From a virus, in the IMG/VR virus record IMGVR_UViG_3300008111_000019, positions 47,088-111,087 of that record: 64,000 nucleotides of DNA; one strand, written 5' to 3'. The notes under the pieces were generated by a model. It saw only the letters and a program-made list of their open reading frames with translations, was not told the DNA's origin and made no database searches. The position numbers and the translations under genes were made by a program. Shown piece after piece: positions 3,982-22,910 of the stretch (positions are counted from its first letter, which is position 1; every line of letters starts with the position of its first letter).

Positions 3982-3991
3982 GGTATAAGAC

Positions 3992-5830: not shown

Positions 5831-5849
5831 TAAAGAATTGGAGCGATAA

Positions 5850-7679
5850 ATGGCCTATGTAATTAATAAAACTAACGGATTACAGTTAATAGTCTTAGAA
5901 GACGGAACAGTAGATACGTCAACTAGTGTAGGTTTGGTAGGACGTAACTATACAGGTTACGGCGAAATCCAGAATGAAAATTTCTTAGGCCTTTTAGAAA
6001 ATTGGGCCAATGCTAATCCTCCTTCTCGTCCAATAAGTGGACAGACATGGTTTAATACTTTTAATAAAACTCTTAATGTCTATGAAGGAGACAAGTGGGT
6101 ACCTGTTGGGTCAACAGTGATTCAAAATACCAGTCCCGAAGGCATCGCTGGAACATTGTGGTTTAAAGGTTCAACAAAACAATTATTTGTCTATAATGAA
6201 AATGCATGGAATCTTGTTGGACCCGAAGGACTTGAAGGATTCGGAGAAACTAGATCTATTTCTACTTTTCTATTAGATTCAACTGGTGCTCAAAGACCAA
6301 TTATATTAAATGTTGTAGATGATAAAGTTATATCTATGACAGCCAGTTCGGCATACCTTATCAGGGCCAACGAACAAACTCATATCACTAACAAATACAA
6401 TTTAGGTTATACCGATAGCGTGTTAAGAACAGTTAGTTCTGGTGTTAACCTAAATATGTTTCCTTCTTTTGGTAATAATTTTATAGGTGCATTAGACGGA
6501 AATGCAGCATCTGCTAGTAGACTAGAAACTCCAAGATTTATCAACGGCATTGCCTTTGATGGACAGAATGATATAACAATAACTTCATCAACTACAGGTA
6601 CACTGAATAGGGGTAGTTATCTAACAGGGAATAATTTTAACGGTTTAAATACCGTGACTTGGGCTGTTGATGCTAGTTCATCTAATTTAATAGGTAAAGT
6701 TGTAGCCAGAGACAGCGCCGGCGACTTTGCTGCCGGAACAATTACAGCAAATTTAGTAGGTAATGTCACAGGTAATGTAACTGCTACAGAAGGCACAAGT
6801 TCTTTTAATGTGGTACAAGCCAACGAGTTTGTAGGAGCGCAACTATCTGGCAATGCGTTTACTGCAACTAGATTGAAAACTCCTAGAACTATAAACGGAG
6901 TAGCGTTCGATGGCAGTGCTGATATCACTGTTACTGCCGCTGCAGATACATTGACAGGTACACAGTTAGCGGCTAACATTGTTCAATTAGGTACACTGAA
7001 TCAATTGAATGTAGCGGACACTGGAATATCTATAGGTAATTCCGGTCAGTTAGATATTTTTATTGATGTGTCTATTCCTACTATTAGAGATACTTCATCA
7101 CAAGGCATTACTTTTAATATTATCGATAATACTATAGGCGATGTAGATTTCAAATTAATTAACAGTACACTGTCGCTATCTCTAGGAGGCGCTAACGCAC
7201 CTGCATTTGTGCCAGAAAATGACAATGTAACTCATTTAGGTATTGTTACTAAACGTTGGAATACTGTTCATGCTAATCTATTTCAAGGTACTGCTACTGC
7301 TGCACGTTATGCCGACCTAGCAGAAAACTATCTAGCAGATGTAGATTATGAACCAGGTACAGTTTTAGAATTTGGTGGCAGTCAAGAAGTTACTGTAGCA
7401 GAAGATGAAACTCGTAAAGTGGCAGGAGTTGTGTCTAGTAATCCAGCATATTTAATGAACAGCGAATTACAAGGCGATCATGTAGTTGCCCTAGCACTAC
7501 AGGGAAGAGTTCCTTGTAAAGTTAGAGGCAAAATCCGTAAAGGAGACATGCTAGTCAGTGGCGGAAACGGCTATGCTAGACCTACTATAGATCCTAAAAT
7601 AGGCACTATTATCGGTAAAGCACTGGAAGATTTTGAAGGTACAGACGGAATTATTGAAATTGTAGTGGGCAGAGTTTAA
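5850..7679 (+). CDS. Tail fibre paralogue 3
   Basis: 609 residues. It has the array N-terminal module (GRNYTGYGEIQNENF, PISGQTWFN, GTLWFKG), then a beta-rich shaft with repeated 'PRFINGIAFDG' / 'PRTINGVAFDG' units. From about residue 480 it carries a C-terminal domain (TATAARYADLAENY, YEPGTVLEFGG, GRVPCKVRGKIRKGD) that is closely repeated at the end of the next gene. This ending is common in marine phage fibres. Ribosome binding sequence TTGGAG precedes the ATG. Likely a distal fibre or fibre-associated protein. Confidence 0.8.
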   Translation: MAYVINKTNGLQLIVLEDGTVDTSTSVGLVGRNYTGYGEIQNENFLGLLENWANANPPSRPISGQTWFNTFNKTLNVYEGDKWVPVGSTVIQNTSPEGIAGTLWFKGSTKQLFVYNENAWNLVGPEGLEGFGETRSISTFLLDSTGAQRPIILNVVDDKVISMTASSAYLIRANEQTHITNKYNLGYTDSVLRTVSSGVNLNMFPSFGNNFIGALDGNAASASRLETPRFINGIAFDGQNDITITSSTTGTLNRGSYLTGNNFNGLNTVTWAVDASSSNLIGKVVARDSAGDFAAGTITANLVGNVTGNVTATEGTSSFNVVQANEFVGAQLSGNAFTATRLKTPRTINGVAFDGSADITVTAAADTLTGTQLAANIVQLGTLNQLNVADTGISIGNSGQLDIFIDVSIPTIRDTSSQGITFNIIDNTIGDVDFKLINSTLSLSLGGANAPAFVPENDNVTHLGIVTKRWNTVHANLFQGTATAARYADLAENYLADVDYEPGTVLEFGGSQEVTVAEDETRKVAGVVSSNPAYLMNSELQGDHVVALALQGRVPCKVRGKIRKGDMLVSGGNGYARPTIDPKIGTIIGKALEDFEGTDGIIEIVVGRV

Positions 7680-7690
7680 TAACAGGGTAC

Positions 7691-7698
7691 GATAAATA
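7691..7698 (+). promoter_or_regulatory. T4-type late promoter, GATAAATA
   Basis: The octamer GATAAATA differs from the T4 late consensus TATAAATA only at its first base. It lies in the 41-base gap between two fibre genes, 22 bases before the ATG at 7721. The ribosome binding sequence CGGAG (7710-7714) falls between the expected transcript start and the ATG. Late T4 promoters need no -35 element. It would give fibre paralogue 4 and the next gene their own late transcript. Confidence 0.6.
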
Positions 7699-7720
7699 AG
7701 TGTATATACGGAGTTAATCA

Positions 7721-9466
7721 ATGGCATATCAAGTAGACAAGTTTAATGGGACGAGATTAGTCTCTGTAGAAGACGGCACCATTGATACCACTACCGACAT
7801 ACGTTTTGTAGGTAAAAACTACGCAGGATACGGTGAAGTACAGAACGAGAATTTTTTACATCTATTAGAAAATTTCTCAAATACCAGTGCTCCTCCTAAG
7901 GTAGTAACCGGGCAGATATGGTATGATAGTGGTAATAAAAAGTTAAGATTTTATGATGGTAGTCGTTTTAGGACTGCCAGCGGTGCAGAAATAGGAACGA
8001 CAGCCCCATCCGGGCTTCAAGCAGGAGATTTTTGGTTCGATACCAGCGCAGAACAGTTGTATGCTTATAACGGTTCTACGTTTGTTTTGATAGGACCAGA
8101 AACTACCCCAGAATTAGGTGCTGCCTCATTGACAGCACAGGTAGTAAAAGATACTCTAGGTACTAATCACAGCATAGGAAAAATTATTTCCGGCGGTGAT
8201 ACCATTGCTATTGTTAGTAAAGATGCGTTTACTCTAGACAGTGGGTTGAACCCCATTACTGGATTCACCACAATAAAGAAAGGTTTGAATCTTGTTAATA
8301 CTAACGGATCTACTGGAGTTACCAGTACAGACCACTTCTATTGGGGAACAGCATCAAATGCTGCTAGATTGGGTGGCTTTTTGGCCAGCGAATATGTAAG
8401 AACTGGAGAAGTTCGATTCGATACAGAGGTGAATTATTCAGATCCTGGTTTAACCATTGGCGGTAATTATCCTTCATACAGTAAAGATCTAGTTCTTAAA
8501 ATAGAGAATGGTGATGAACCAATTATTGAATCTAGATTAGCCAGCCCACTAACTCTTCGTGTAAGAGTTTCAGCCAGCGATGTGCGTAATTTTTATATTA
8601 CTTCTACAGGCTTTTTGCCAGGAGCCAATAATTTTTACAATTTAGGTTCTTCTACAGAAAATTGGGCTAATGTTTACGCTACGACATTTACAGGAAATCT
8701 AAGTGGATCAGTAACTGGTAACACGTCTGGTACACATACAGGTCCAATGGTAGGCAATTTAACCGGTAATGTGATTGGAAATTTAAATGGCACAGTCACA
8801 GGAAACGTTATTGGATCAGTTACTGGAACGGCTAGTAATGCTTTAACCTTAAACAGTCTAAATAGTGAATTTGGTGCAGTGGCAGTATCGGTGGCTATCA
8901 GAGACGCATCTGCCAATCTTACAGCAAACAGATTTATTGGAATCGCAGATAAGTCAGATAGATTAAAAATTGATGACAGTGCTACAGATACAGATCCTAG
9001 TTATAGGTCTGCTAAAACTCTTGCTTCTGGTAATACTATTGCAGCCAGAGATAGTTTAGGTAATTTGTTTGCAGTTTTGTTTGACGGTACTGCTACAGCA
9101 GCGAAATATGCTGACCTAGCAGAGAAGTATCTTACAGATCGTGAGTATGAACCAGGTACAGTAGTGACAGTGGGCGGCGAAGCAGAAGTTAGAGCCACTG
9201 TTTTTGGAGATCGTGCTATCGGAGTAGTAAGTACAAATCCAGCATTTATGATGAACAAAGAGTTAGAAGGTGGTACATATATTGCCCTAAAAGGTCGTGT
9301 ACCGTGCAAGGTAGTAGGATCGGTACGCAAAGGCGATCGATTAGTGGCTACAGAAAATGGTTGTGCTATCGCTGCCAGTTTCCATCAACATCCAGATGTT
9401 TTTGGTATCGCTTTACAAAGTGATCAAGATGTTGGCGTCAAAACTATAGAAGTGTTAGTATTATAA
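7721..9466 (+). CDS. Tail fibre paralogue 4
   Basis: 581 residues, the last of the fibre array. The N-terminal module is present (GKNYAGYGEVQNENF, VVTGQIWYD, GDFWFDT). Residues ~325-370 form a Gly/Asn/Thr repeat (alternating GN and TG steps), as expected for a beta-helical shaft. From residue ~456 the C-terminal domain repeats that of paralogue 3 (TATAAKYADLAEKY, YEPGTVVTVGG, GRVPCKVVGSVRKGD). It is preceded by its own late-promoter-like octamer. Likely a tail fibre component; the paralogue pair may allow alternative or heteromeric fibres. Confidence 0.8.
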   Translation: MAYQVDKFNGTRLVSVEDGTIDTTTDIRFVGKNYAGYGEVQNENFLHLLENFSNTSAPPKVVTGQIWYDSGNKKLRFYDGSRFRTASGAEIGTTAPSGLQAGDFWFDTSAEQLYAYNGSTFVLIGPETTPELGAASLTAQVVKDTLGTNHSIGKIISGGDTIAIVSKDAFTLDSGLNPITGFTTIKKGLNLVNTNGSTGVTSTDHFYWGTASNAARLGGFLASEYVRTGEVRFDTEVNYSDPGLTIGGNYPSYSKDLVLKIENGDEPIIESRLASPLTLRVRVSASDVRNFYITSTGFLPGANNFYNLGSSTENWANVYATTFTGNLSGSVTGNTSGTHTGPMVGNLTGNVIGNLNGTVTGNVIGSVTGTASNALTLNSLNSEFGAVAVSVAIRDASANLTANRFIGIADKSDRLKIDDSATDTDPSYRSAKTLASGNTIAARDSLGNLFAVLFDGTATAAKYADLAEKYLTDREYEPGTVVTVGGEAEVRATVFGDRAIGVVSTNPAFMMNKELEGGTYIALKGRVPCKVVGSVRKGDRLVATENGCAIAASFHQHPDVFGIALQSDQDVGVKTIEVLVL

Positions 9467-9476
9467 GGAATAGAAA

Positions 9477-10448: not shown

Positions 10449-10454
10449 TTTTTC

Positions 10455-10498
10455 CTCCTATAAAACCACATATAAATAATGTGCGTATTTTATAGGAG
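10455..10498 (+). promoter_or_regulatory. Late promoter inside a hairpin that sequesters the ribosome binding site
   Basis: CTCCTATAAAA (10455-10465) and TTTTATAGGAG (10488-10498) are perfect 11-base inverted repeats. An inner 5-base stem, CACAT (10467-10471) / ATGTG (10479-10483), brings the late promoter octamer TATAAATA (10471-10478) to the top. The right arm contains AGGAG (10494-10498), the ribosome binding site of the ATG at 10504. A read-through transcript would hide this site. A transcript started ~7 bases after the octamer would lack the left arm and leave the site open. The layout matches the known T4 lysozyme gene e control. Confidence 0.7.
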
Positions 10499-10503
10499 TT
10501 CAC

Positions 10504-10854
10504 ATGGACGAACGTCTGGCTAAAGCCCTAGATTTTTCAAAATTTAGGCAAACACTAACATTAGAACGTAAAAATCTCAAAGAAAAAATTGATGCTAATC
10601 TAACCTACGGTTATAATGGAGGCATCTTTAAAATTGATAGATCTTTGATAGTATTTGTTCAAATGTTAATCGACCAACAGAGAACTGAAAATGTTCCTCT
10701 CCTAGATTCAAATGACACACCTATTTTAATTTCTGATTTGAATACCTTCAAAGACGAAATATTAGATAGGTATATGACTGCGGTTTATGAATATTTTAGG
10801 CAGTACGAAAAAATAAAAAAATCTAGATCAGTAGATAAACTTATAGAACTATGA
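10504..10854 (+). CDS. Small conserved phage protein, first gene of the accessory operon
   Basis: 116 residues, mostly helical and charged, with 'MDERLAKALDFSKFRQTLTLERKNLKEKI' split by a short 'YGYNGGIFKI' turn. No catalytic motif, membrane segment or signal peptide is visible. The start is fixed by AGGAG five bases upstream, itself held in an inverted repeat. The stop overlaps the next start as ATGA (10851-10854). I recall similar proteins in cyanophages, without function. As the first gene behind the gated promoter, its translation may set expression of the genes below by coupling. Confidence 0.6.
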   Translation: MDERLAKALDFSKFRQTLTLERKNLKEKIDANLTYGYNGGIFKIDRSLIVFVQMLIDQQRTENVPLLDSNDTPILISDLNTFKDEILDRYMTAVYEYFRQYEKIKKSRSVDKLIEL

Positions 10855-11708
10855 AAAAAGGAATAGTTATTTTCGCTCATAACAGCCGAAAGGTTGATTA
10901 TAGTCTTATGTCTATAATCGCTGGCGGCCTAGCGAAAAAGCATCTTCAGATGCCAGTCTCTTTGATAACTGATCAATCTACTATGGATTGGATGAGTACT
11001 AGCAGTGCTATAAAAGATGCCGAATCTGTTTTTGATCAAATTATTATAACCGAACGTCCTTACTCAGAAAATTATAGAACATTAAGTGATGGTAATCTTA
11101 TAGACAATGTTCCTTTTATTAACAACAATAGATTTTCAGTTTGGGATTTAACTCCTTACGATAGAACATTATTAATTGACAGTGATTTTTTAATTTTTTC
11201 AGACAGATTAAAATCTCATATTGATTCTGATATTGATCTAATGATTGGAGAATCTATGATCGATCTAGGCGGAAATCGAGTAGGCACTTTAGACAAGTAT
11301 GTTTCAGACACTGGCCCTAATTTATATTGGGCAACTAATGTAGTTTTTACAAAAAATGAAAATACAAAAATATTTTTTAATTTGGTAGACTACATAAAAG
11401 AAAATTATTCTTATTATTGTGATCTTTTTAGATTTTATCCTAGACCTTATAGGAACGATATTTCATTTAGCGTTGCTAAACATATACTAGACGGATATAA
11501 CAAATCTCAAGAACAAAGTTTACCGTCAATACCCACAACTACAGATAAAGATCTATTAGTGGATATAGATGCCAACGGAAAATTAATTTTTTTAATTAAT
11601 CAAGGTAATGACGATTACGTTGCAATCTCTATCAAGAATCAAGATGTTCATGTTATGAACAAACAGAGTTTGATAAGGAACAGTGAAGTTTTGCTTAAAT
11701 TAATATGA
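10851..11708 (+). CDS. Putative GT-A glycosyltransferase
   Basis: 285 residues. The N-terminus 'GIVIFAHNS' and the central 'DRTLLIDSDFLIF' with D110-S-D112 fit a GT-A fold with a DxD metal and nucleotide-sugar site. The layout (opening strand, ~100 residues, DxD, then an acceptor-side region) resembles GT8-like enzymes. It is a distant paralogue of the next gene, which has the same plan. Both junctions are ATGA overlaps, so it is probably translationally coupled. Donor and acceptor are unknown. The link to glycan synthesis is from the fold motif and neighbours only. Confidence 0.55.
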   Translation: MKKGIVIFAHNSRKVDYSLMSIIAGGLAKKHLQMPVSLITDQSTMDWMSTSSAIKDAESVFDQIIITERPYSENYRTLSDGNLIDNVPFINNNRFSVWDLTPYDRTLLIDSDFLIFSDRLKSHIDSDIDLMIGESMIDLGGNRVGTLDKYVSDTGPNLYWATNVVFTKNENTKIFFNLVDYIKENYSYYCDLFRFYPRPYRNDISFSVAKHILDGYNKSQEQSLPSIPTTTDKDLLVDIDANGKLIFLINQGNDDYVAISIKNQDVHVMNKQSLIRNSEVLLKLI

Positions 11709-12532
11709 AATTTGGATATTTACTAATCACCTCAAAAAACGAATCTGTTAACTATAACAAACTAGCCTATGCGTTAGCGTTGAGTATAAAAAACACACAG
11801 AAAGAAGGGTATGACCAAGTCTGCTTAGTTACAGACGATTTGTTGTCAGCAAAAAATTTTACATCTTCGTGGGTGTTTGATCAAATAATAGAACATCCAG
11901 GACACACTGGGTGGTCTGGCAGAAGTTATATGGACCAATTGAGTCCTTTTGATTACACAGTCTGTTTAGATGTTGACATGTTATTTTTAAATGATTGCAG
12001 TCATTGGGCACAATACTTTATTGAAAATACAGATTTGTTTATCACAGACAGAGCGTTTACCTATAGAGGCGAGCCTGTAACTTCCGATTATTATAGAAAG
12101 ACATTTACGGCTAATAACTTGCCAAACCTATATAGTTATTATACATTCTTCAAACGAGATTCAGATCAAGTAAAAGAATTTTTTACCTTGCAAAGAGAAA
12201 TTTATAATAATCCTACAGAATTTTCTAATGTCTTTCTCAACGAATTCAAACCTAAAATAATTGGAACAGATGAAGCGTTTGCTTTGTCTGCAAAATTGTT
12301 AGAACTAGAATTTCCTAAATTAGAATTTCCTAACGTAGTACACATGAAAGGTCAAGTACAAAACTGGCCTTGGCCCGCTGACGAATGGACCAATCATGTG
12401 GGATTTTATTTTAACAAAACTGGATTAAAAATAGGAAATTTTCAACAGAAAGATCTTATACATTATGTTAATAAAGATATTATCCTGGATGAAATAATCA
12501 GTATACTTGAGGAAACAGCATGGAAGAAGTAA
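11705..12532 (+). CDS. Putative GT-A glycosyltransferase, second copy
   Basis: 275 residues beginning 'MKFGYLLITSKNESVNYNKLA', with 'DYTVCLDVDMLFL' giving D89-V-D91 as the probable DxD site. Late in the protein, 'GTDEAFALSAKLLEL' and 'VVHMKGQ' match the spacing of GT8-like enzymes, where a downstream His helps bind metal. It overlaps the upstream gene as ATGA and the downstream gene by 13 bases. It probably acts with its neighbours on the same glycan. The sugar and acceptor cannot be deduced. Confidence 0.6.
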   Translation: MKFGYLLITSKNESVNYNKLAYALALSIKNTQKEGYDQVCLVTDDLLSAKNFTSSWVFDQIIEHPGHTGWSGRSYMDQLSPFDYTVCLDVDMLFLNDCSHWAQYFIENTDLFITDRAFTYRGEPVTSDYYRKTFTANNLPNLYSYYTFFKRDSDQVKEFFTLQREIYNNPTEFSNVFLNEFKPKIIGTDEAFALSAKLLELEFPKLEFPNVVHMKGQVQNWPWPADEWTNHVGFYFNKTGLKIGNFQQKDLIHYVNKDIILDEIISILEETAWKK

Positions 12533-13107
12533 TTGACTTCGATCAATGGTATCAAACTCATAATATAGAAATTGAGTACTGGGCAGTTTATGATCCTGAA
12601 ACGGGTAAAGTAAAAGGAATATATCCTAACCAATCTGCAGATTCCTTCGAACATAAAATTAAAGTAGATCAAGAAACAGGAGAAGCCATAGGTTCTGGAA
12701 AAATATCATTGGCTAATTGTTATATTGATTTTGAATCAGATACTCTTGAAATAATAGAAATTAAATCGTTGATTAAAATTGACGATGTTCTACACAGAAT
12801 AATAGACAGTCGCTGGGCCGATTCAAAAGATCCCGACCTAACAATCAGTGTCAAAGATAATAATTTAATTTTTTCTTTGTCAGACAAAGTAAAATCAAAA
12901 AAAAGAATTCATTATAACGGTGATACTATAATGGATTTTTACATTACCGAATACAACGATCCTAATATACTTTTTGAAAAATTTTCAATACAATTAAATC
13001 AGTTAATTGACGAGGAAAAAAGTTTTCAAATTAAATTGCCTCAAAAATTTAGTGTGTATACACGTCGCATTTTTAAAAAATATATTCTTATAAATGAAAA
13101 CAATTGA
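12520..13107 (+). CDS. Orphan protein inside the glycosyltransferase/radical SAM operon
   Basis: 195 residues, acidic N-terminal region and Lys-rich C-terminus. The segment 'YWAVYDPETGKVKGIYPNQ' (residues ~20-38) looks like a small beta domain that I recall as a module in marine phage proteins of unknown role. No cysteine pattern, DxD or SAM motif is present, so it is not another enzyme of the neighbouring types. It overlaps its upstream gene by 13 bases and its downstream gene by 14. It could be a carrier, substrate or scaffold for the surrounding enzymes; this is inference. Confidence 0.5.
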   Translation: MEEVIDFDQWYQTHNIEIEYWAVYDPETGKVKGIYPNQSADSFEHKIKVDQETGEAIGSGKISLANCYIDFESDTLEIIEIKSLIKIDDVLHRIIDSRWADSKDPDLTISVKDNNLIFSLSDKVKSKKRIHYNGDTIMDFYITEYNDPNILFEKFSIQLNQLIDEEKSFQIKLPQKFSVYTRRIFKKYILINENN

Positions 13108-14011
13108 ATTTGATGTAATCTTTTTAAGTTATGACGAGCCTAATGCAGATCTGCATTATGCTGATTTATGCAGTAAGGTACCTTGGGCTAAACGTGTACA
13201 CGGTGTTAAAGGTTCCGACCATGCTCACAAAGCCGCAGCAAATTTATCAGATACTGATTGGTTTATCACTGTGGATGCTGATAATATTGTAGATCCTAAA
13301 TTTTTTAATATTGATCTAGATATGAGTGATCCTAAGATACAGGTCTATGGATGGTGCGGTCGTAATGTGATCAACGGATTGCGTTACGGAAACGGCGGAT
13401 TAAAAATTTGGAAGAAAGATTTTGTGCTTAACATGAAAACGCACGAAAACTCAGATAGTGATCGCGGACAAGTAGATTTTTGTTGGGAAGATGGATATCG
13501 TAACTTTCCTTTAAGTTTCAGCGACAGTATCATTACAGGTTCTCCATTTCAGGCTTGGAGAGCAGGATTTCGAGAAGGTGTTAAAATGACCTTACTTGAT
13601 GGTGTTAAAGTTCCTGCACAAGAAATACAACAGAGAATATGGTGGCATAATATCCATAGACTGCGCATGTGGTCTACAGTTGGTAGCCATGAAGAAAATG
13701 GAATCTATGCAGTATATGGTGCAAGATTAGGCACATGGATGGCCAACTGCACCGAATGGAATTATGTAGATGTAAGAGATTTTGAAATACTTAGAGGTAT
13801 ATGGCAGCAGTACGGAAAACCTTATGAAGAAGTTAACGAAGACGGCCTAGTTGACGAAATAAAAAATCTCGGAGAAAAAATAAAATACAATCTAGGATTA
13901 GATTGGCCTTGGCTAGATGCCCAACAGAGCAAATATACTTTGGATTTATATAATGAAACTATGAATCTAAACGATACTTATTTCCGGATGCCGGTGCCTG
14001 CAGATGTATGA
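13094..14011 (+). CDS. GT-A-like glycosyltransferase
   Basis: 305 residues. 'FDVIFLSYDEPNAD' opens a GT-A-type domain, 'AKRVHGVKGSDHAH' follows at ~32-45, and 'WFITVDADNIVDPKF' supplies D61-A-D63 as the likely DxD site. 'RNVINGLRYGNGGLKIWKK' follows at ~110-128. The same string of motifs recurs in the C-terminal third of the next gene, so the two are paralogues. I recall this type in T4-like cyanophages as glycosyltransferase-like proteins. The acceptor is unknown; position suggests it works with the radical SAM enzymes downstream. Confidence 0.6.
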   Translation: MKTIEFDVIFLSYDEPNADLHYADLCSKVPWAKRVHGVKGSDHAHKAAANLSDTDWFITVDADNIVDPKFFNIDLDMSDPKIQVYGWCGRNVINGLRYGNGGLKIWKKDFVLNMKTHENSDSDRGQVDFCWEDGYRNFPLSFSDSIITGSPFQAWRAGFREGVKMTLLDGVKVPAQEIQQRIWWHNIHRLRMWSTVGSHEENGIYAVYGARLGTWMANCTEWNYVDVRDFEILRGIWQQYGKPYEEVNEDGLVDEIKNLGEKIKYNLGLDWPWLDAQQSKYTLDLYNETMNLNDTYFRMPVPADV

Positions 14012-15992
14012 TATTTTTTACGTTTCAAAAACAAAAGGCAATGATGATGACTGGGCAACATTTAAGTCAGAATATCCTATTGCACAACGTTTAACAAATG
14101 TAACATCCTACGAACAAATTAAGTCAAAAGCATTTACAAAAATGTTTTGGGTAGTTTGGGATGATCTTAATTTACTAAAAACATTTAATTTAAATAATTA
14201 TAGAGCAACAAAATGGGACGATATGTATGTTCACGTTTTTAAAAACGGAGAACATCATGACGGAGTTTGTTTATTTCCTAAATCATTAAATGTTTCTCAA
14301 AAAGAATTTCATCATAGATTTTTTACAGCAAAAAAAGAAATAGAGATTAACGCTAGTACTCCAAAGAAATATAATATCTATACTCCGCAATCATATGATG
14401 AGTATAAGTCTATAGAAGATGAAATGTTCTGGTGTATATGGCCAGAGGTTGAAGTTACAGACGAATCTATTTTTGATTTATATTTCAGCCATCATAACAC
14501 ATATGATCGCAGAGAAAATCATATTTTTAAAAACACATGTAACGAAGTTGATTCGTATATGAGTGGCATCGTGCTTTGTAGCAGGTATAAGCGAATTTCA
14601 TCTCGAGAGTTTGAAAAACAATATCTTGTTGATAAAAAAGAATACGATGTAACTGCCAGCAAATTTAGATACCCTAGGCATGTTATACATAGTTATGAAC
14701 AATACTTAGAAATTTTAAACAACGAAAGCCAAAGTATGTTTTGGGGTATATGGCCAGAGATTGAAATAATTGACACAACAATACTTGATTTTTACTTTGA
14801 TCCTAACAATAAAGAATATGATGCTGACAGACATCAAAATCATATGTTTAAAAATTTATGTAATAATGAAGAGTCTTATCTTAACGGACTTGTTTTATTT
14901 TCTAAAGAGAAAACTATATCGAAAAAAGAATTTTCTCGCAGATATCTAATCGAGAAAAAAGAACATAACAAGGTTGTTAGTCGTTATAGATATCCTAGAT
15001 ATGTTATGCATAGTTATGAGCAGTACTTAGAAATTTTAAACAATGAAAGTCAAAAAATGTTCTGGGGTATATGGCCAGAAGTTGAAATTATAGATCAATC
15101 TATTTTTGGTTTATATTTTGATCCCAGAGACTGGAAAGAACAATACGACACCAGCGAAAATAACACATTTAAACATAGTTTCAATGATAAGATAATATCA
15201 ATGAATAGTCCAGTATTATTTTCTAAACAGAGTCCTATAGGAAAACGAGAATTTTCTCATAGATTCTTAACCAATAAAAAAGAAAATGATAAAGTTATCT
15301 CCAAGCATAAATTATATGATGTAGTTTTTATAAGTTATAATGAACCGAATGCAGATGAAAACTATCAAAAATTACTAGATAAATGTCCCAGGGCTAAGAG
15401 AGTACATGGTGTAAAAGGAATACATCGGGCTCATATTAAGGCAGCGGAATTGTCAGAAACAGACATGTTATGGATAGTGGATGGTGATGCTATCATATCC
15501 AATGATTTCAATTTTGATCTAGTATATTTTAGTTACAGTTATGATGTAGATTGCGTTCACGTATGGAGTAGTCGGAACCCTATTAACGGTTTAGAATACG
15601 GATATGGCGGAGTAAAATTGCTTCCAAGATTATTAACATTGAATATGGACTTAAATACTGCCGACATGACTACATCTATATCTAAAAAATTCAAATCGAT
15701 GAATGTTGTATCTAATATCACTGTCTTTAATACTGATCCTTTTAACACATGGAAATCGGCATTTAGAGAATGCGCTAAGTTAGCCAGTAAGGTAATAGAA
15801 AGACAAGACAATGACGAAACAATTAAACGATTAGATACATGGTGTGAAGTTGCCGATGGGGATTACGGATATTATGCCATTGCAGGAGCATTAGCAGGTC
15901 GTGCATACGGAGAGCAGAATAAAGGTAACTTCGAAACACTTAAGAAGATAAACGATTTTGACTGGTTAAGAGAAAAATTTAATGCAGGATAA
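14004..15992 (+). CDS. Four-repeat protein fused to a GT-A-like glycosyltransferase domain
   Basis: 662 residues. Four tandem repeats of ~95-107 residues occupy positions 1-435, each with a 'MFWxxW' core at residues 47, 141, 245 and 352, then 'HxFKN' or a variant, an 'LFSK'-like strand, and a 'KEFxxR' to 'KKE' helix end. Residues ~437-662 are a glycosyltransferase-like domain paralogous to the previous gene (YDVVFISYNEPNAD, AKRVHGVKG, D493-G-D495). The repeats may bind glycan or protein and position the catalytic part. This fused layout is unusual. It overlaps both neighbours (8 and 11 bases). Confidence 0.6.
   Translation: MYDIFYVSKTKGNDDDWATFKSEYPIAQRLTNVTSYEQIKSKAFTKMFWVVWDDLNLLKTFNLNNYRATKWDDMYVHVFKNGEHHDGVCLFPKSLNVSQKEFHHRFFTAKKEIEINASTPKKYNIYTPQSYDEYKSIEDEMFWCIWPEVEVTDESIFDLYFSHHNTYDRRENHIFKNTCNEVDSYMSGIVLCSRYKRISSREFEKQYLVDKKEYDVTASKFRYPRHVIHSYEQYLEILNNESQSMFWGIWPEIEIIDTTILDFYFDPNNKEYDADRHQNHMFKNLCNNEESYLNGLVLFSKEKTISKKEFSRRYLIEKKEHNKVVSRYRYPRYVMHSYEQYLEILNNESQKMFWGIWPEVEIIDQSIFGLYFDPRDWKEQYDTSENNTFKHSFNDKIISMNSPVLFSKQSPIGKREFSHRFLTNKKENDKVISKHKLYDVVFISYNEPNADENYQKLLDKCPRAKRVHGVKGIHRAHIKAAELSETDMLWIVDGDAIISNDFNFDLVYFSYSYDVDCVHVWSSRNPINGLEYGYGGVKLLPRLLTLNMDLNTADMTTSISKKFKSMNVVSNITVFNTDPFNTWKSAFRECAKLASKVIERQDNDETIKRLDTWCEVADGDYGYYAIAGALAGRAYGEQNKGNFETLKKINDFDWLREKFNAG
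14688..15096 (+). repeat. Tandem intragenic duplication, period 321 bases
   Basis: The segments starting at 14688 and 15009 are nearly identical for about 88 bases, for example sharing 'cttagaaattttaaacaa', and encode the start of protein repeats 3 and 4 (HSYEQYLEILNNESQ in both). Differences are largely at third codon positions. Repeats 1 and 2 are recognisable only at the protein level, so the 3/4 duplication looks the most recent. Confidence 0.75.
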
Positions 15993-17352
15993 AGCTAGAA
16001 TACAAAAATTTATTCCTATTATGAATGAAGTTTCGCCGACTTTTTGTTTAGCGAAATGGCATCATACTACGATTTATTTACAGACAGGTGAAACTCATAG
16101 TTGTTATCACCCTCCACCACACCCAATTCCTCTTGAAGAGTTAATAATGAATCCCGGTGCATTACATAATACTACTCAAAAGAAAATGGAAAGGCTGGAA
16201 ATGCTCAACGGAGAAAAACCCAGCGGTTGTAACTATTGTTGGAATATAGAAGCACTAGGCGAAGATTATATCAGCGATCGAAAAGAAAGAAATGCCAGCA
16301 TTTACAATCTCGAAAGATTTGATCAGATTAAAAACGGCGATTGGGATCAAAATATTAATCCTCAATATATAGAAATAAGTTTTGGTAACGAATGTAATTT
16401 CAAGTGCGGGTATTGTCACCCTAAACATTCAAGCAGTTATTACAAAGAAATAAAAGATCACGGTCCTTATACTATGGTTAAAAATCATAGGAACGACATT
16501 GATTGGTTTAAAATTTATGAAGAAGAAAATAATCCGTATGTAGATGCCTGGTGGCGTTGGTGGCCTGAAGTACGTAATACTCTGACAATTCTAAGAATAA
16601 CAGGAGGCGAACCGTTACTGCAACAAAGTACTTGGCGCCTGTTAGAAGATCTGGAAAACAACCCGTCGCCTGATCTTGAACTTAATATTAACAGCAATTT
16701 TGGTGTAAAGCCTATACTTTTAGATAGACTTACTGAAAAGGTCAATAATTTAATAGAAAATAAAAAAATTAAAGATTTTAAAATTTTCACTAGTATGGAT
16801 ACTTGGGGTCCCCAAGCAGAGTATATTCGAACAGGATTAGACATTGAACTATGGGAAAGAAATCTCAATACCTACCTAACTAAAACCAATTTGCCCATAA
16901 CATTCATGATTACCTTTAATATATTAACGGTTCCAAATTTTTCAACTTTATTAACTAAAATTTTAGAGTGGAGACAGAAATATAATCATGATAATCAAAA
17001 CAAATGGCAACGTGTGAGATTCGATACTCCGTTTTTAAAAGAACCGTTGCAGTATGATATGAATATATTGCCTAAAGAAGAATTCATGCCCTATATGTAC
17101 GATCATTTAAATTTTATCAAAGATAATTTAGATGATAAAAATAGGTTTAAATTTAGTGAATTAGAATATGAAAAATTTTTAAGGGTAGTGAAGTACATGG
17201 AAACTACCAACTATAGCAATGATAAATTAACTGAAGGAAGAAAAGATTTTTATAATTGGTTCAACGAGTACGATCGAAGACGAGGAACTAATTTTGAAGA
17301 AACCTTCCCTCAACTAAGAAATTTTTTAGAGATGTGTAAAAATTATGGATAA
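15982..17352 (+). CDS. Radical SAM enzyme with extra N-terminal cysteine motif
   Basis: 456 residues. The radical SAM [4Fe-4S] site is C138-x3-C142-x2-C145 ('CNFKCGYC'), with the SAM-binding 'TGGEPLL' at ~206-212. Upstream, C22, C41 and C83-x2-C86 form a pattern like a half SPASM (twitch) auxiliary cluster placed before the core. Such enzymes modify peptides or small metabolites by radical chemistry. The end 'RRGTNFEETFPQL' recurs in the next gene. It overlaps the glycosyltransferase gene by 11 bases and the next radical SAM gene by 8. The substrate is unknown. Confidence 0.8.
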   Translation: MQDKARIQKFIPIMNEVSPTFCLAKWHHTTIYLQTGETHSCYHPPPHPIPLEELIMNPGALHNTTQKKMERLEMLNGEKPSGCNYCWNIEALGEDYISDRKERNASIYNLERFDQIKNGDWDQNINPQYIEISFGNECNFKCGYCHPKHSSSYYKEIKDHGPYTMVKNHRNDIDWFKIYEEENNPYVDAWWRWWPEVRNTLTILRITGGEPLLQQSTWRLLEDLENNPSPDLELNINSNFGVKPILLDRLTEKVNNLIENKKIKDFKIFTSMDTWGPQAEYIRTGLDIELWERNLNTYLTKTNLPITFMITFNILTVPNFSTLLTKILEWRQKYNHDNQNKWQRVRFDTPFLKEPLQYDMNILPKEEFMPYMYDHLNFIKDNLDDKNRFKFSELEYEKFLRVVKYMETTNYSNDKLTEGRKDFYNWFNEYDRRRGTNFEETFPQLRNFLEMCKNYG

Positions 17353-19798
17353 AGACAATTTTTGTTTACAGCCTTGGGTAGGAATTCATGCATGGCCAGA
17401 CGGGTCAGTTTTCCCCTGCTGTATGTACGATTCAAGTAAACCCCTTGGAAACATTAATCAAGAACATATTGAAGATTTAGTTAATAACGATTCTTACAAG
17501 CAATTAAGACACCAGTTACTAAACAACGAACGTCCCGAGGGATGTAAGCGTTGTTATCAGTTAGAAGAATCGGGCATTCAAACACTAAGACAATCAACCA
17601 GTGCTACGTTCAAGAAACATCTAATTCCTATTGTTGAATCAAAAAAAGATACAATGAGTGAAGTTAGGTATCTTGATATTAGATTTAGTAATATCTGCAA
17701 TTTCAAATGCAGAACATGTGGCCCCGAATTAAGCAGTAAGTGGGGACCCGAGATTCCTCTTTTAAAAAATCAACCAGATCCTGGAATTATTCAAATACCA
17801 AGAGAAAAGTTTTGGAATTATTACGAACAGGCTTTAGAAACTGCTGAAGAAATAGTTTTTGCTGGGGGTGAGGCATTGATGCAAGAAGAGCATTATGCTG
17901 CCTTAACAAAATTGATCGAGATGAAACGCTTCGATGTCAAGTTAATGTATACTACGAATCTTAGCACTTTGAAATACAAACAGATAGATCTTTTTGAATT
18001 ATGGAGTAAGTTTTATAGAGTTGAAGTGTATGCTAGTTTAGATGCATCGTGGGAGCGAGGAGAATACTTACGAAAAGGCACTGTATGGAAAAATATAGTT
18101 GAAAACAGGAAAAAATTAAAATTATTGCCCGGCGTAAAATTCCATATCACGCCTACTATAAGTCTTTATAATGTATGGCATTTTCCAGATTTCTATAAAG
18201 AGTGGGTGCTAGAAGAATTACTAGAACCTAAGAATATTAGATTGAATATACTAACACAGCCCCCTCGTCAACAGGCCAATGTGCTAGAAAATAAACATGT
18301 CATTATCGATAAATGGAACGAACTAATTACATGGACCAAGGCTGTAATGAAAAATACAGAAGCCAGTTCAGCAGTAGTAAGTCAGTTTGAAAGTGTGATA
18401 AATTTTTTAATGACTGAACCAGAAAATAAATTTAAATTAACAGAAAAATTTGGATACGTTAATCAATCAGTTGACAGCATTCGAAATGAAGATCTTTTTG
18501 AAACTTTCCCAGAACTTAGAGATCATTTAAAAATTCCATCGATGAGATCTAAAACGTTTTGTGTATTTCCTTTCTTTAATTTAAACAGCAATACAGATGG
18601 TAGTGTAAAACTTTGTTGTACTGTGCGAGATAATTCACACCTTAAAAAATCTGACGGTACTGAATTTAATTTAGGTCAGGATTCTATAGAAGAAATTTGG
18701 AATAACGAACATATGCAGAATGCTCGCTGGAAAATGCTAGTGGGTGAAGAAGTTTCTGACTGCCAAGTTTGTTATAGACACGAAAAATTATCCGGTAGTA
18801 GCAGTAGAACTGAATCTAATAAAAAATATCAATCTGATATTAATGTTATAAAGTCAGTGAATGAATTTTTACACAATTCAAAAGTATCTCTAGACAAATT
18901 AACTAGTTTAGAATTAAGATTGGGCAATACTTGTAATTTGGCCTGTAATTCATGTTGGGGCGGCAGTAGTAGTAAAGTCAATGAAGAACGGCAACGTATT
19001 TTAGATAAAGAGACGGAAAATAAAAAATATCAGGTAATGTGGGCCAGTGAACGAAATATTCCTGCTGATATTAATAAATGGTTTAAAAATGAAACATACA
19101 AAGATACTATGGAGAAAGTATCGGGTAATCTTAAAAGAATATACCTTACAGGCGGCGAACCGACTTTGATCAAAGAAAATAGAACATTACTAAAAAATCT
19201 TATAGAATCTAACAATACAGATTGTTTTGTAAGTTTTACTACTAATGGTACAACAGCAGAAGGCGAACTGTTAGATTTAATGTCTCATTTCCCTAATAAT
19301 GAGATACAGATCAGTATAGATGGTGTTGGGTATGAAGGAAATTATATTAGACATCCTTTAAATTGGCAAGAATTTGATAATAACTTTACTGCTATTGCAG
19401 CCCTGCCAAATATCAAGATTGTTGTTTATTCTGTGATCAGTGCTTACAATTTATTTTCTTTACCAGACATATGGCGTTATCTCGATAACAAAGCAGAATA
19501 TCGCCCTGTAGGTTGGTATCCTATTTTCTTAGATAATCCAAACTTTATGCGCACTACGATATGGAGTAGTGAAATGAGATCAGATGCTGTGATTAAAATG
19601 CAAGAAGCAGAGGGACAACTAAAACATCTAAATAGATATGTAGGTCAAGAAGTGTTCCAAAAAATTTACGAATACTATTACAGTGAAGAATACCAAAAAG
19701 ATAAGATCAGTGAGTTTTTAGAATTTAATAGACTGCTGGACAAACATAGAGGCACGAATTTCGAGTCTACATTTTTTGAGATATCATGCCGAATCTAA
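17345..19798 (+). CDS. Double radical SAM enzyme: two complete twitch/SAM modules in one chain
   Basis: 817 residues made of two similar halves. Half 1: auxiliary cysteines C7, C25-C26 and C67-x2-C70, core C118-x3-C122-x2-C125, GGEA at 174-177. Half 2: C406, C424-C425 and C473-x2-C476, core C530-x3-C534-x2-C537, GGEP at 603-606. Each half ends with a 'FETFPEL' or 'FESTFFEI' type segment. Length is about twice a single enzyme, so it arose by duplication and fusion. The Ala in GGEA of half 1 may weaken SAM binding. It overlaps the next gene by 13 bases. Confidence 0.85.
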   Translation: MDKDNFCLQPWVGIHAWPDGSVFPCCMYDSSKPLGNINQEHIEDLVNNDSYKQLRHQLLNNERPEGCKRCYQLEESGIQTLRQSTSATFKKHLIPIVESKKDTMSEVRYLDIRFSNICNFKCRTCGPELSSKWGPEIPLLKNQPDPGIIQIPREKFWNYYEQALETAEEIVFAGGEALMQEEHYAALTKLIEMKRFDVKLMYTTNLSTLKYKQIDLFELWSKFYRVEVYASLDASWERGEYLRKGTVWKNIVENRKKLKLLPGVKFHITPTISLYNVWHFPDFYKEWVLEELLEPKNIRLNILTQPPRQQANVLENKHVIIDKWNELITWTKAVMKNTEASSAVVSQFESVINFLMTEPENKFKLTEKFGYVNQSVDSIRNEDLFETFPELRDHLKIPSMRSKTFCVFPFFNLNSNTDGSVKLCCTVRDNSHLKKSDGTEFNLGQDSIEEIWNNEHMQNARWKMLVGEEVSDCQVCYRHEKLSGSSSRTESNKKYQSDINVIKSVNEFLHNSKVSLDKLTSLELRLGNTCNLACNSCWGGSSSKVNEERQRILDKETENKKYQVMWASERNIPADINKWFKNETYKDTMEKVSGNLKRIYLTGGEPTLIKENRTLLKNLIESNNTDCFVSFTTNGTTAEGELLDLMSHFPNNEIQISIDGVGYEGNYIRHPLNWQEFDNNFTAIAALPNIKIVVYSVISAYNLFSLPDIWRYLDNKAEYRPVGWYPIFLDNPNFMRTTIWSSEMRSDAVIKMQEAEGQLKHLNRYVGQEVFQKIYEYYYSEEYQKDKISEFLEFNRLLDKHRGTNFESTFFEISCRI

Positions 19799-20745
19799 TA
19801 GCCATTTCTCCCAAAGACAATCCGTACCTTGCTATAACATGGCAGGTTAATAATTTTTGCAATTATAGGTGTAGTTATTGTAACGAAGGAAACTGGAGTG
19901 GGTCTTACACTAATGAAGATAAAATTGATGTTTTATTAGAAAATTTAGAAAAAATAATAAAATATTATCAAGATAACGGTTATGTATATTTCAAGTTTTA
20001 TTACAGTGGCGGTGAACCTACCCTCTGGAAAGGTTTAATACCAGTATCTAATTTTCTCAAAGAGAGATTGGGTCATAATGTAACTTTAGGAATTAATACA
20101 AACCTAAGTAGAAAAATTTCTTGGTGGGAAAAACATTATCAATTGTTTGATGATGTAGTTGCTAGTTATCATCCTGAGTTTGCAAATAAATCAAATTACT
20201 TAGAAATTGCAGAATTTTTACAAAATAAAGTAAATTATCTTTGTTTAAGAATGATGCTGTTAGAAGAAAAGTTCGATGACATGTTAACAGTAGGAGCAGA
20301 AATTAAAAGTAAATTAAAGAATTACAATCTTGAATGGGTTCCGCTATTAGATGAAATGAGTGTTGTAACGGGCCCGTGGAAATACAAAGATTCTAGAATA
20401 TCGGATTTTATATCAAAAAATAATTTTGAATCTAAGGTAACTATATATAAACCCGAACCAAAAACAGTAATTGCTTCAGTAGAAAAATACGATGATGGCA
20501 CTGTAAAGACTTTGAATAGTAATAGAATCGTAGCAGAAAACAGAAATTTTTTCCAAGGATGGAAATGTAAAGTTCAGGAATCTATTTTTATTTCACCTAG
20601 CGGAACAATGAGAGCCGCAAGTTGCGGCCAAGGACCGATGTTAGGAAACATATTCGATGTTTTTAAATTAACGTCAAATGACGTTATCTGTCAAAAGGAC
20701 TATTGTCATTGCGGAACTGATATATTAATTACTAAAGAAAAATGA
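19786..20745 (+). CDS. Radical SAM enzyme lacking the N-terminal auxiliary motif
   Basis: 319 residues. The core C25-x3-C29-x2-C32 ('CNYRCSYC') lies close to the N-terminus, with 'YSGGEPTL' at ~73-80. Unlike the other operon members it has no preceding CC/CxxC set. Instead a C-terminal Cys group follows 'GWKCKVQES' and ends 'CQKDYCHCG', as in a SPASM-type domain after the core. It therefore belongs to a different subfamily. ATGA links it to the next gene. The reaction is unknown. Confidence 0.8.
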   Translation: MPNLIAISPKDNPYLAITWQVNNFCNYRCSYCNEGNWSGSYTNEDKIDVLLENLEKIIKYYQDNGYVYFKFYYSGGEPTLWKGLIPVSNFLKERLGHNVTLGINTNLSRKISWWEKHYQLFDDVVASYHPEFANKSNYLEIAEFLQNKVNYLCLRMMLLEEKFDDMLTVGAEIKSKLKNYNLEWVPLLDEMSVVTGPWKYKDSRISDFISKNNFESKVTIYKPEPKTVIASVEKYDDGTVKTLNSNRIVAENRNFFQGWKCKVQESIFISPSGTMRAASCGQGPMLGNIFDVFKLTSNDVICQKDYCHCGTDILITKEK

Positions 20746-21977
20746 CCAGAAAAAATTTTTGCCTATATCCTTTTGCTGCGTTTAGTCTTGATAATGCAGG
20801 CAGACAACGTATATGTTGTAATAATCAAGGATATGATAGATTAGAAAAAAATAAAGAATTTAACGATCCCACGTTTGAAGTCTTAGAATCTTTTAATAAT
20901 GATTTTCATAAAGAAATAAGAAAATATTTCATAGAAGATAAAAAACATCCTACTTGTAAAAAATGTTGGGAGATTGAAAGTAACGGAAAAATAAGTTGGA
21001 GACAATGGTTCAACGAAAGTTTCGGAGTTTCAATGGATGAAGAATATTGGATTTCGAAATGTGACGCAGACGGTACTATCAAAGAAGCAGAATTTTATTA
21101 TCTAGATATCACGTTCGGTAACAGATGTAATCTTAAATGCGTAATGTGTAACGGATTTAACAGTACTTTATTTCTAAAAGAACAATTAGATACCAAACAA
21201 ATACCTATAGAACATTATGATAGAATGATGAAGTTAGATTGGTATCATGACGGAAGTTGCCTTGAAAAACTGTATCCTTTTGTCAGCAAGGTTGAAAGAA
21301 TACATATTGTTGGCGGCGAACCTTTAATAATTGATCATCAAGCATTTTTACAAAAATTTATTGATCTCGGAATATCTAAGAACATAGTATTAAGTTATAA
21401 TTCTAATCTTACTAAAACACCAAGAGAAATATTAGACTGTTGGAAAGAATTCAAACGTGTTTATTTGTGTGTAAGTGTTGATGCTTACGGTAAATTAAAT
21501 GAATTTATTAGATATCCAATGAAATGGAATAAGTTAATAGATAATTTAGAAACTATTGATGCTGTGGCTAAAGAACAAGAAAATATTAGCATACAGATAC
21601 ATGCAACATTTAGTTCATTAAACTGTGATAGGATTATAGAGTTTTTAGATTGGCACAAGGAAATATCTACACAATTAACATCGATTGAACCTCATCCCAT
21701 GTTCAATTATGTTTATAACCCTAAATATTTTGATCCAACACATCTTCCTCAAGAAACTAAAAATAAAATATACGAAGATTATATCAAATGGGAATCAAAT
21801 AATCTCGAATACTTAGAAAGAAACGGAACCAGAGAAAGAATTGATATGTTGAAAAGTTATATCGAAAAAATGATAAAGTCTGGAAGAAACGAAAAACTAT
21901 ATCGAGACGGCATAGATAAAATTGCTTTCTTTGAAAAAGTAAGAGATATTACTTTTCCTACTAAAACAGAGTCTTAG
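20742..21977 (+). CDS. Radical SAM enzyme with N-terminal twitch-like cysteines
   Basis: 411 residues. The auxiliary pattern C7, C25-C26, C72-x2-C75 and the core C129-x3-C133-x2-C136 ('CNLKCVMC') match the halves of the double enzyme upstream; GGEP is at 191-194. The C-terminal region is helical and charged. It is the last gene of the operon. Its stop codon lies inside the tail of the converging minus-strand gene (17-base overlap), leaving no room for a separate terminator. It probably acts in the same pathway as its paralogues. Confidence 0.8.
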   Translation: MTRKNFCLYPFAAFSLDNAGRQRICCNNQGYDRLEKNKEFNDPTFEVLESFNNDFHKEIRKYFIEDKKHPTCKKCWEIESNGKISWRQWFNESFGVSMDEEYWISKCDADGTIKEAEFYYLDITFGNRCNLKCVMCNGFNSTLFLKEQLDTKQIPIEHYDRMMKLDWYHDGSCLEKLYPFVSKVERIHIVGGEPLIIDHQAFLQKFIDLGISKNIVLSYNSNLTKTPREILDCWKEFKRVYLCVSVDAYGKLNEFIRYPMKWNKLIDNLETIDAVAKEQENISIQIHATFSSLNCDRIIEFLDWHKEISTQLTSIEPHPMFNYVYNPKYFDPTHLPQETKNKIYEDYIKWESNNLEYLERNGTRERIDMLKSYIEKMIKSGRNEKLYRDGIDKIAFFEKVRDITFPTKTES

Positions 21978-22266
21978 TTGAATCGGTAATATCTCTTTTC
22001 AATCTTTCTATATCTATTTTAAAATCTATCTTTTTTATTTCGTCTTTGTACTCTTGAAGAGTCTCTAATAGTTTTTCTGCGATAGATTCTGGAGCAGACC
22101 CTTGGAGTTGAGCACGTACATCAATCTGCCATATCCTGCCATCTTCAAACGTTAAATGTACCATTTCAAGATATGCAACAGGCATGGTATTCATGTACAT
22201 ATCTTCAAATACCTCCGGCCACTCTTTTACAAGATGCATTGGCGGTCTAAACAACGGCTTAGGCAT
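21961..22266 (-). CDS. Conserved phage protein of unknown function
   Basis: 101 residues. Starts 'MPKPLFRPPMHLVKEWPEVFEDMYM', then a strand-rich middle ('YLEMVHLTFEDGRIWQIDV') and a charged C-terminal helix. No catalytic motif. It overlaps the upstream minus-strand gene by 8 bases and converges on the radical SAM operon. I recognise the type from T4-like marine phages but not a function. Confidence 0.55.
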   Translation of the reverse strand: MPKPLFRPPMHLVKEWPEVFEDMYMNTMPVAYLEMVHLTFEDGRIWQIDVRAQLQGSAPESIAEKLLETLQEYKDEIKKIDFKIDIERLKRDITDSTKTLF

Positions 22267-22909
22267 CTGCTGTTTCTTTAGTCTTTGAAGATTTTTTTAC
22301 AGTCGGATCTAGATCTTCTGCTTCTTTACGTAGACGTGCTGCTTCTTTGTATAGTGCATCTGCTTGACTGCGTAATCCTTTAGCAATATCTTTGTCAGAT
22401 AATATTTCATTCTGCTGTGCTTGAATTTTTGCAGGCTTGCTAGGTTCTCCTAGATCTTTTCCCAGGTCGTTAACTGCGGCAACATTTTCTACAGTAGCAT
22501 CTGACTGTTTTGGAGCACCGGATACAAATGTACATAGATCGTCAACAGCACAGTTTTTTTGCTCTGCTATCAACGAATTTAATTGATGCAACGGAATGTT
22601 ATCATTGGGTGTAGGAGTCATTAGAACAGAATCAGTAGTTACTCTTTCCAATAATCCGTCTGCTCTTAGTGCCTGTAGCATTGGACGACCATCTGGAAAA
22701 CTTCTAATAAAAAGAATTTCACCAAACTCAAAAACTTCTTGAGCCTGATCACTTTCTACTACTTTCATAATAGAGTCGTGATATGTATCAGATAACTGAG
22801 CCACAGGAATAACTAGAGAATAGTTAGATTCTCCGGGGAGCGTCCTGAATACCACCAAAACTTTCGCTCCCGATTTGATCATTCTACCAGTGTGTTTTAG
22901 TGCTCTCAT
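22259..22909 (-). CDS. Conserved phage protein, low-complexity C-terminus
   Basis: 216 residues. The N-terminal ~120 residues form a compact domain (VLVVFRTLPGESNYSLV, ARADGLLERV); the rest is helical, Ala/Lys/Glu-rich and probably extended. I recall 'MRALKHTGRMIKSGAKVLVVF' openings in T4-like cyanophages, where the function is also unknown. A DNA- or structure-binding role is possible but unsupported. It begins one base after the stop of the next gene upstream, in a block of small genes transcribed together. Confidence 0.6.
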   Translation of the reverse strand: MRALKHTGRMIKSGAKVLVVFRTLPGESNYSLVIPVAQLSDTYHDSIMKVVESDQAQEVFEFGEILFIRSFPDGRPMLQALRADGLLERVTTDSVLMTPTPNDNIPLHQLNSLIAEQKNCAVDDLCTFVSGAPKQSDATVENVAAVNDLGKDLGEPSKPAKIQAQQNEILSDKDIAKGLRSQADALYKEAARLRKEAEDLDPTVKKSSKTKETADA

Positions 22910-22910
22910 A

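What the first reader, a model, noticed from the sequence alone, without database searches (positions are those of the whole stretch)
10504..21977. Ten-gene glycosyltransferase and radical SAM operon beside the tail fibres
Ten genes run in one direction with overlaps at every junction (4 to 14 bases), which is strong for co-expression. They encode one small protein, four GT-A-like glycosyltransferases, an orphan protein and four radical SAM genes with five radical SAM cores. Glycosyltransferases alone are common in phages; this ratio of radical SAM cores in one phage operon is unusual. Substrate is unknown. Best reading: radical modification of a glycan or glycoprotein, perhaps fibre-borne.
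Basis: partly seen in the sequence, partly recalled or inferred. Interest (0 to 1): 0.9.

Follow-up and report, generated by a model that had tools for sequence, protein, structure and literature searches.

The report
Phage glycan operon with radical enzymes
A large aquatic virus of bacteria carries, next to its tail-fibre genes, a ten-gene operon that most likely builds a sugar chain and then chemically tailors it with radical enzymes; one sugar-transferase gene in it is repeatedly swapped between otherwise near-identical viruses, as genes that set surface identity often are.

Summary
Ten overlapping genes (10504-21977) encode g1, GT-A-type transferases g2, g3, g5 and g6, orphan g4, and four radical SAM (rSAM) genes with five CX3CX2C cores. 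Four cores (g7, both halves of g8, g10) belong to NCBIfam NF033640, "N-twitch" rSAM.

Comparison with about 100 viral loci changes the picture. The unit is a core g1-g2-g3-g4-g5(-g6), always in this order, directly behind a fibre-like gene in 42 of 46 informative loci. The rSAM genes are a variable tail (0 to about 6). g6 is a GT preceded by 0 to many degenerate copies of its own GT core, and is allele-swapped: it is 62% identical to a relative whose neighbouring genes are 92-100% identical. A hairpin hiding the g1 ribosome site, with a T4-type late element in its loop, predicts late-only expression in this clade.

The rare bacterial N-twitch rSAMs lie in O-antigen export loci in two of three genomes, once fused to the exporter ATPase Wzt. 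A glycan is therefore the best substrate (about 0.8). Virion versus host envelope is unresolved; I favour the virion. rSAM genes and GTs in such phage islands were noted before; the core, swapped gene, late switch and Wzt fusion appear undescribed.

The parts
10455..10498 (+). Leader hairpin whose 3' arm contains the Shine-Dalgarno AGGAG (10494-10498) of g1
   Evidence: RNA fold -19.2 kcal/mol, z -2.4, z -4.6 in a tighter window; 12 of 13 leaders of this clade fold with z <= -2.6, 10 of those with at least 3 of 5 SD bases paired
10471..10478 (+). T4-late-type element TATAAATA in the loop of the hairpin
   Evidence: TAAATA at -30 to -34 of the g1 ATG in 13/13 leaders of this clade; the same motif upstream of the genes at 1237 and 7721. 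The bare motif is not enriched in the window (2 vs 8.7 expected)
10504..10854 (+). g1, 116 aa, first gene of the conserved core, no known family, no Cys
10851..11708 (+). g2, 285 aa, GT-A-type (GT8/glycogenin-like) glycosyltransferase, invariant D110xD112
   Evidence: homologous to g3 (24%, 3e-6)
11705..12532 (+). g3, 275 aa, GT-A-type (GT8/glycogenin-like) glycosyltransferase, invariant D89xD91
12520..13107 (+). g4, 195 aa, mostly beta orphan protein
   Evidence: AlphaFold2 pLDDT 82, no PDB match E<=0.001; weak DUF5620 below cut-off
13094..14011 (+). g5, 305 aa, GT-A glycosyltransferase of a nearly phage-restricted family, invariant D61xD63
14004..15311 (+). g6 N-terminal part: four degenerate GT-core units (residues 1-121, 122-222, 223-329, 330-436), DGDA replaced by WDDL / WPEV / WPEI
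   Evidence: hhalign unit 1 vs own GT core prob 99.4, E 1.8e-21; AF2 model; unit number varies between loci
15312..15992 (+). g6 C-terminal GT-A domain, invariant D493xD495
15982..17352 (+). g7, 456 aa, N-twitch radical SAM protein, C138xxxC142xxC145
   Evidence: NF033640 314 bits
17345..19798 (+). g8, 817 aa, two N-twitch radical SAM units in tandem (C118/C122/C125 and C530/C534/C537)
   Evidence: NF033640 656 bits, two stretches; SPASM and Radical_SAM twice each
19786..20745 (+). g9, 319 aa, radical SAM protein without N-terminal twitch, C-terminal Cys cluster
   Evidence: PF04055 33.7 bits
20742..21977 (+). g10, 411 aa, N-twitch radical SAM protein, C129/C133/C136
   Evidence: NF033640 288 bits
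9477..10448 (+). F4-family fibre-like protein that directly precedes g1 in 42/46 informative loci
   Evidence: no PHROG hit of its own, but it lies in the fibre block
1909..9466 (+). Tail-fibre / virion structural genes upstream
   Evidence: PHROGs tail fiber and virion structural hits

Best explanation
The operon encodes a cytoplasmic pathway that assembles and tailors a glycan late in infection. The GT8/glycogenin-like g2 and g3 and the GT2-like g5 and g6 build the chain (g6 fold and DxD motifs shown; reactions inferred). g6, with its swapped alleles and variable number of pseudo-GT units, sets which sugar or acceptor is used (variation shown; role inferred). The N-twitch rSAM enzymes g7, g8 and g10, plus g9, then alter sugar C-H positions in the chain or its precursors, for example by epimerisation, oxidation or deoxygenation (family and association shown; chemistry inferred). 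g1 and g4 are accessory or scaffold proteins (guess). The late element inside an SD-hiding hairpin restricts translation of g1, and by coupling of the operon, to late transcripts, as in T4 soc, e and I-TevI (inferred from sequence). The acceptor is most likely a virion protein, a tail fibre first of all (inferred, weakest step).
For: GT-A fold and invariant DxD. rSAM family membership and intact CX3CX2C motifs. Purifying selection. Core order g1-g5 constant, F4 fibre-like gene directly upstream in 42/46 informative loci. Larger arrays of the same kind contain UDP-glucose/GDP-mannose dehydrogenase and a DegT-type sugar aminotransferase. Bacterial N-twitch rSAMs occur in O-antigen ABC-exporter loci with RmlC/RmlD, WbsX and GTs, one as a single ORF ABC_tran-Wzt_C-SPASM-Radical_SAM. 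A distant g6-type GT lies in a KSB1-bacterium export locus. Late-type leader in 13/13 of this clade, stable hairpin in 12/13, with T4 precedent (PMC2988022). g6 allele exchange in several near-isogenic pairs, with a sharp 5' boundary at the g6 start codon. No convincing transmembrane segment in the ten proteins. The cultured Vibrio phage K566 has N-twitch rSAMs interleaved with GT8 genes.
Against: No substrate, product or enzymatic activity is known for any member. A sister clade drives g1 from sigma70-type promoters, which does not need late timing. The F4 gene is 95% identical where g6 is 63% identical, so g6 does not track that fibre-like protein. The bacterial relatives act in envelope polysaccharide loci, which equally suits a host-surface target. 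Core loci without rSAM genes exist, so radical tailoring is not essential to the core. Two of the five bacterial N-twitch loci read have no sugar context.
Confidence: 0.45

Rival explanations
1. The same glycan chemistry acts on the host envelope: the operon alters LPS/O-antigen of the infected cell, blocking superinfection or keeping progeny from sticking to debris; g6 swaps change serotype.
For: Bacterial N-twitch rSAMs lie in O-antigen export loci, one fused to Wzt with its Wzt_C domain. g6 allele swapping resembles serotype-gene exchange. Sigma70-type promoters in the sister clade. Pelagimyophage GTs in the host-recognition island were read this way (PMC7029224).
Against: No membrane GT, flippase, exporter or lipid-carrier enzyme in the operon. 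Constant linkage to a fibre-like gene. The late-only leader fits superinfection exclusion poorly, though not debris avoidance.
Confidence: 0.33
2. The rSAM enzymes modify a protein or peptide (fibre protein or g1) by epimerisation or cross-linking, independently of the GTs.
For: Many SPASM/twitch rSAMs are peptide maturases and give weak cross-hits here. Fibre proteins sit next door.
Against: Only NF033640 matches above its cut-off; all peptide-maturase models are far below theirs. No precursor-like small ORF: a single 30-aa candidate in the whole operon, and g1 has no Cys. Bacterial relatives sit in polysaccharide loci.
Confidence: 0.12
3. The operon hypermodifies phage DNA (glycosylated or radical-modified bases).
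For: Phage GTs can act on modified bases (general knowledge). The window also has a QueE-like rSAM and GTP cyclohydrolase I.
Against: Late-type leader and tail-fibre linkage. No thymidylate-synthase/dCMP-hydroxymethylase homologue in the 111-kb record, which is incomplete. The QueE/FolE-like genes lie on the other strand, outside the operon.
Confidence: 0.04

Closest known systems
Host-recognition cluster of pelagimyophages (PMC7029224) and T4-like environmental genome TARA_ERS488813_N000010 with 12 radical SAM genes (PMC5332604)
   Same: T4-like aquatic myoviruses; GTs and radical SAM cassettes, in the first case in a hypervariable island beside tail fibres
   Different: Those papers report presence only; no conserved core, allele swap, leader switch, pseudo-GT repeats or rSAM family was found there by term search. 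Identity of those genes with this family was not tested
NCBIfam NF033640 N_Twi_rSAM
   Same: g7, g8 (x2) and g10 are members above the curated cut-off
   Different: The family carries no assigned reaction in its name; here four units stand in one phage operon with GTs
Wzm/Wzt O-antigen ABC-exporter loci (general knowledge)
   Same: Bacterial relatives of the rSAMs sit in such loci, one fused to Wzt
   Different: The phage operon has no exporter or lipid-carrier enzyme
Mycobacteriophage virion glycosylation (Freeman 2023, as cited in PMC12619734)
   Same: Phage-encoded GTs glycosylate virion proteins
   Different: No radical SAM tailoring reported there to my knowledge; only a fold-level GT hit to Che8
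T4 late-only hairpin leaders (soc, e, I-TevI, segB; PMC2988022)
   Same: Late element and SD-sequestering hairpin in the same arrangement
   Different: Here it precedes a biosynthetic operon; shown by sequence only
Vibrio phages K566/K567 (OZ196521, OZ196593)
   Same: Cultured phages with N-twitch rSAM genes interleaved with GT8 genes
   Different: No g1-g6 core detected in the K566 region; about 23% identity of the rSAMs

Membership tests
NF033640 N-twitch radical SAM | Score above curated cut-off (170 bits) over the full model | tested here: met
   g7 314, g8 656 (two stretches), g10 288 bits; g9 34 bits: not a member
NF033640 N-twitch radical SAM | CX3CX2C core plus N-terminal auxiliary-cluster cysteines | tested here: met
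   Cys at 22/41/83/86 and 138/142/145 in g7; equivalents in both halves of g8 and in g10
Radical SAM superfamily (g9) | CX3CX2C and PF04055 above its gathering score | tested here: met
   CNYRCSYC at 25-32, 33.7 bits vs 29.5
GT-A glycosyltransferase (g6, g5) | GT-A fold | tested here: met
   g6 AF2 pLDDT 89; Foldseek hits are GT-A enzymes: K4 chondroitin polymerase 1e-6, RmlT, SunS, PBCV-1 capsid GT; g5 by homology to the g6 GT domain
GT-A glycosyltransferase | DxD metal/nucleotide-sugar motif | tested here: met
   Invariant in all four families
GT8 / glycogenin-like (g2, g3) | Significant profile match | tested here: inconclusive
   Profile vs PDB glycogenin E 0.17 (g2) and 0.008 (g3), no GT hit in Pfam
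GT-A glycosyltransferase | Sugar transfer activity | not testable with these tools
   needs an assay
Gtr-type seroconversion cassette | Membrane flippase GtrA and bactoprenol GT GtrB with membrane segments | tested here: not met
   No convincing transmembrane segment in any of the ten proteins (highest Kyte-Doolittle 19-mer 1.58)
RiPP biosynthetic operon | Precursor peptide ORF beside the maturase | tested here: not met
   One 30-aa candidate only; g1 conserved along its length, no Cys
T4-type late-gated leader | Late promoter positioned so that late mRNA lacks the 5' arm of an SD-hiding hairpin | tested here: inconclusive
   Sequence and fold fit, 13/13 with TAAATA and 12/13 with z<=-2.6; transcript start not mapped; RNAalifold on the MAFFT alignment gave only 8 pairs, 2 covarying

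The most novel reading that the evidence does not exclude
Aquatic T4-like phages carry their own late-gated pathway that coats the virion with a glycan whose sugars are remodelled by radical SAM enzymes, with g6 as an exchangeable, repeat-expanding specificity gene. N-twitch rSAMs would then be a carbohydrate-tailoring radical family shared with bacterial O-antigen export.
Probability: 0.35. Interest if true: 0.85.

Novelty: new variant of a known kind. Interest (0 to 1): 0.62.

Why it matters
NF033640 is named for its domains, not a reaction. Its place in polysaccharide loci, including a Wzt fusion, makes a carbohydrate substrate a direct and testable proposal. If true, viruses would carry radical chemistry for surface glycans, and g6 would be a new type of swapped specificity gene. 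The cultured Vibrio phages K566/K567 offer a tractable system for the rSAM/GT part.

Tried and rejected
No match of g1, g5, g6 or the F4 gene in 50,697 cultured-phage records. g4 fold search gave nothing. RNAalifold on the MAFFT leader alignment was poor because the stems did not align, so single-sequence z-scores were used. A bacterial origin of the GT core was considered: g5 profile hits in 1/398 Pseudomonadota genomes (a phage-like contig) and 2/82 in the KSB1 phylum, so a recent bacterial source is unlikely in the groups sampled. NF033640 in bacteria is rare: 3/398, 2/199 and 0/82 genomes over the threshold used, two of the five being phage-like contigs. DNA modification and RiPP readings were considered and ranked low. 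TATAAATA as a motif alone is not enriched in the window, so its conserved position is the argument. A Burkholderia 'radical SAM' in an O-antigen paper was hopanoid HpnH, unrelated. The mycobacteriophage glycosylation paper itself is not in the library.

Full report
Observation. The ten ORFs are as described and overlap by 4-14 nt. The window lies in a 111-kb IMG/VR virus record with T4-like head and baseplate genes; its DNA polymerase is closest to Sinorhizobium phage Phosso and Agrobacterium phage Atu_ph07, 51% and 48%. rSAM identity is strong: g7, g8 twice and g10 in NF033640; g9 in Pfam Radical_SAM; CX3CX2C in all five cores. GT identity rests on invariant DxD motifs, weak glycogenin matches for g2/g3 and a confident g6 model that matches GT-A enzymes. 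All ten genes are under purifying selection.

Comparative anatomy. Scans of IMG/VR found 13 loci with g8 relatives and 215 stretches with g6 relatives, of which 80 were kept. Gene maps show g1-g2-g3-g4-g5 always in this order where g1 is present. g6 follows g5 directly in most loci and is separated from it by rSAM genes in others. The upstream neighbour of g1 is the F4 fibre-like gene in 42 of 46 loci where it can be seen (loci are not all independent; many are near-identical). rSAM genes vary from none (for example L037, L041, L060) through one (L095) and several (L023) to the window's five cores and more. So the core is the stable unit and the rSAM tail is modular.

g6. The N-terminal unit is homologous to the protein's own GT core (hhalign probability 99.4, E 1.8e-21), but DGDA is replaced by WDDL, and by WPEV/WPEI in later units. 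The window has four such units. L017 has none (229 aa, intact GT) and L077 encodes 1250 aa. Between the window and L007 the genes from 7721 to 26313 are about 92-100% identical, except g6 at 62-63%. Nucleotide identity falls from 97% to 68% at the g6 start codon and recovers gradually inside g7. The same pattern recurs for L015/L016 (98 vs 79), L047/L068 (98 vs 72) and L012/L014 (93 vs 61). This is repeated allele replacement of one gene, typical of surface-specificity genes (inference).

Leader. In 13 of 13 leaders of the window's clade TAAATA stands 30-34 nt before the g1 ATG. In 12 of the 13 the leader folds with z between -2.6 and -8.5, and in 10 of those at least 3 of 5 SD bases are paired. 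In the window the element is in the loop, so a transcript started from it would lack the 5' arm. T4 uses this arrangement for late-only translation (PMC2988022). In the sister clade, eight of nine leaders have TTGACA-17-TATACT-like promoters instead. Both are sequence inferences.

Substrate. N-twitch rSAMs are rare in bacteria. Five loci from three genomes were read. L123 is an O-antigen export locus with RmlC, RmlD, Wzm, a TylF-type methyltransferase and WbsX, and four N-twitch rSAMs, one in a single 854-aa ORF with ABC_tran, Wzt_C, SPASM and Radical_SAM. L134 has two relatives (151 and 138 bits, just below the 170 cut-off) beside an ABC exporter and GTs. L124 has one beside an NAD-epimerase and GT2. 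L133 and L135 show no sugar context. Larger phage arrays contain UDP-glucose/GDP-mannose dehydrogenase and a DegT-type aminotransferase. Together this supports carbohydrate as the rSAM substrate class at about 0.8; it is association, not assay.

Target. For the virion: fibre linkage, late leader, no membrane proteins. For the host envelope: O-antigen context of relatives, serotype-like swapping, sigma70-type promoters in one clade, and the published reading for pelagimyophages (PMC7029224). I favour the virion by a small margin.

Novelty. rSAM cassettes and GTs in such islands were reported before (PMC7029224; PMC5332604). I found no description of the conserved core, the swapped pseudo-GT gene, the late-gated leader or the Wzt-rSAM fusion; the literature search was limited to an open-access library.

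Noticed in passing
L123:8582-11143 (-): Single ORF fusing Wzt (ABC_tran + Wzt_C) to an N-twitch radical SAM enzyme in a bacterial O-antigen export locus.
   Followed up: partly
L099 (Vibrio phage K566, 161548-170335): Four N-twitch-type rSAM genes interleaved with two GT8 genes and a GT4-like gene in a cultured phage.
   Followed up: partly
L037, L039, L042, L043, L053, L054, L077, L079, L088 upstream of g1: Sister clade replaces the late element with sigma70-type promoters before the same gene.
   Followed up: no
window 26301-27158 (-) and 32528-33367 (-): QueE-like radical SAM (by motif) and GTP cyclohydrolase I, hinting at a separate 7-deazaguanine pathway.
   Followed up: no
L105 (KSB1 bacterium contig): Truncated distant g6-type GT in a bacterial polysaccharide ABC-export locus with a DegT aminotransferase and an rSAM.
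   Followed up: partly
L100, L101, L102, L103, L104: Contigs binned into bacterial MAGs (Neomarinimicrobiota, Rickettsiales, Neisseriaceae) look like phage contigs carrying the same core or arrays.
   Followed up: partly
L054:1-267: Fragment resembling a 2-oxoglutarate hydroxylase close upstream of g1, by eye only.
   Followed up: no
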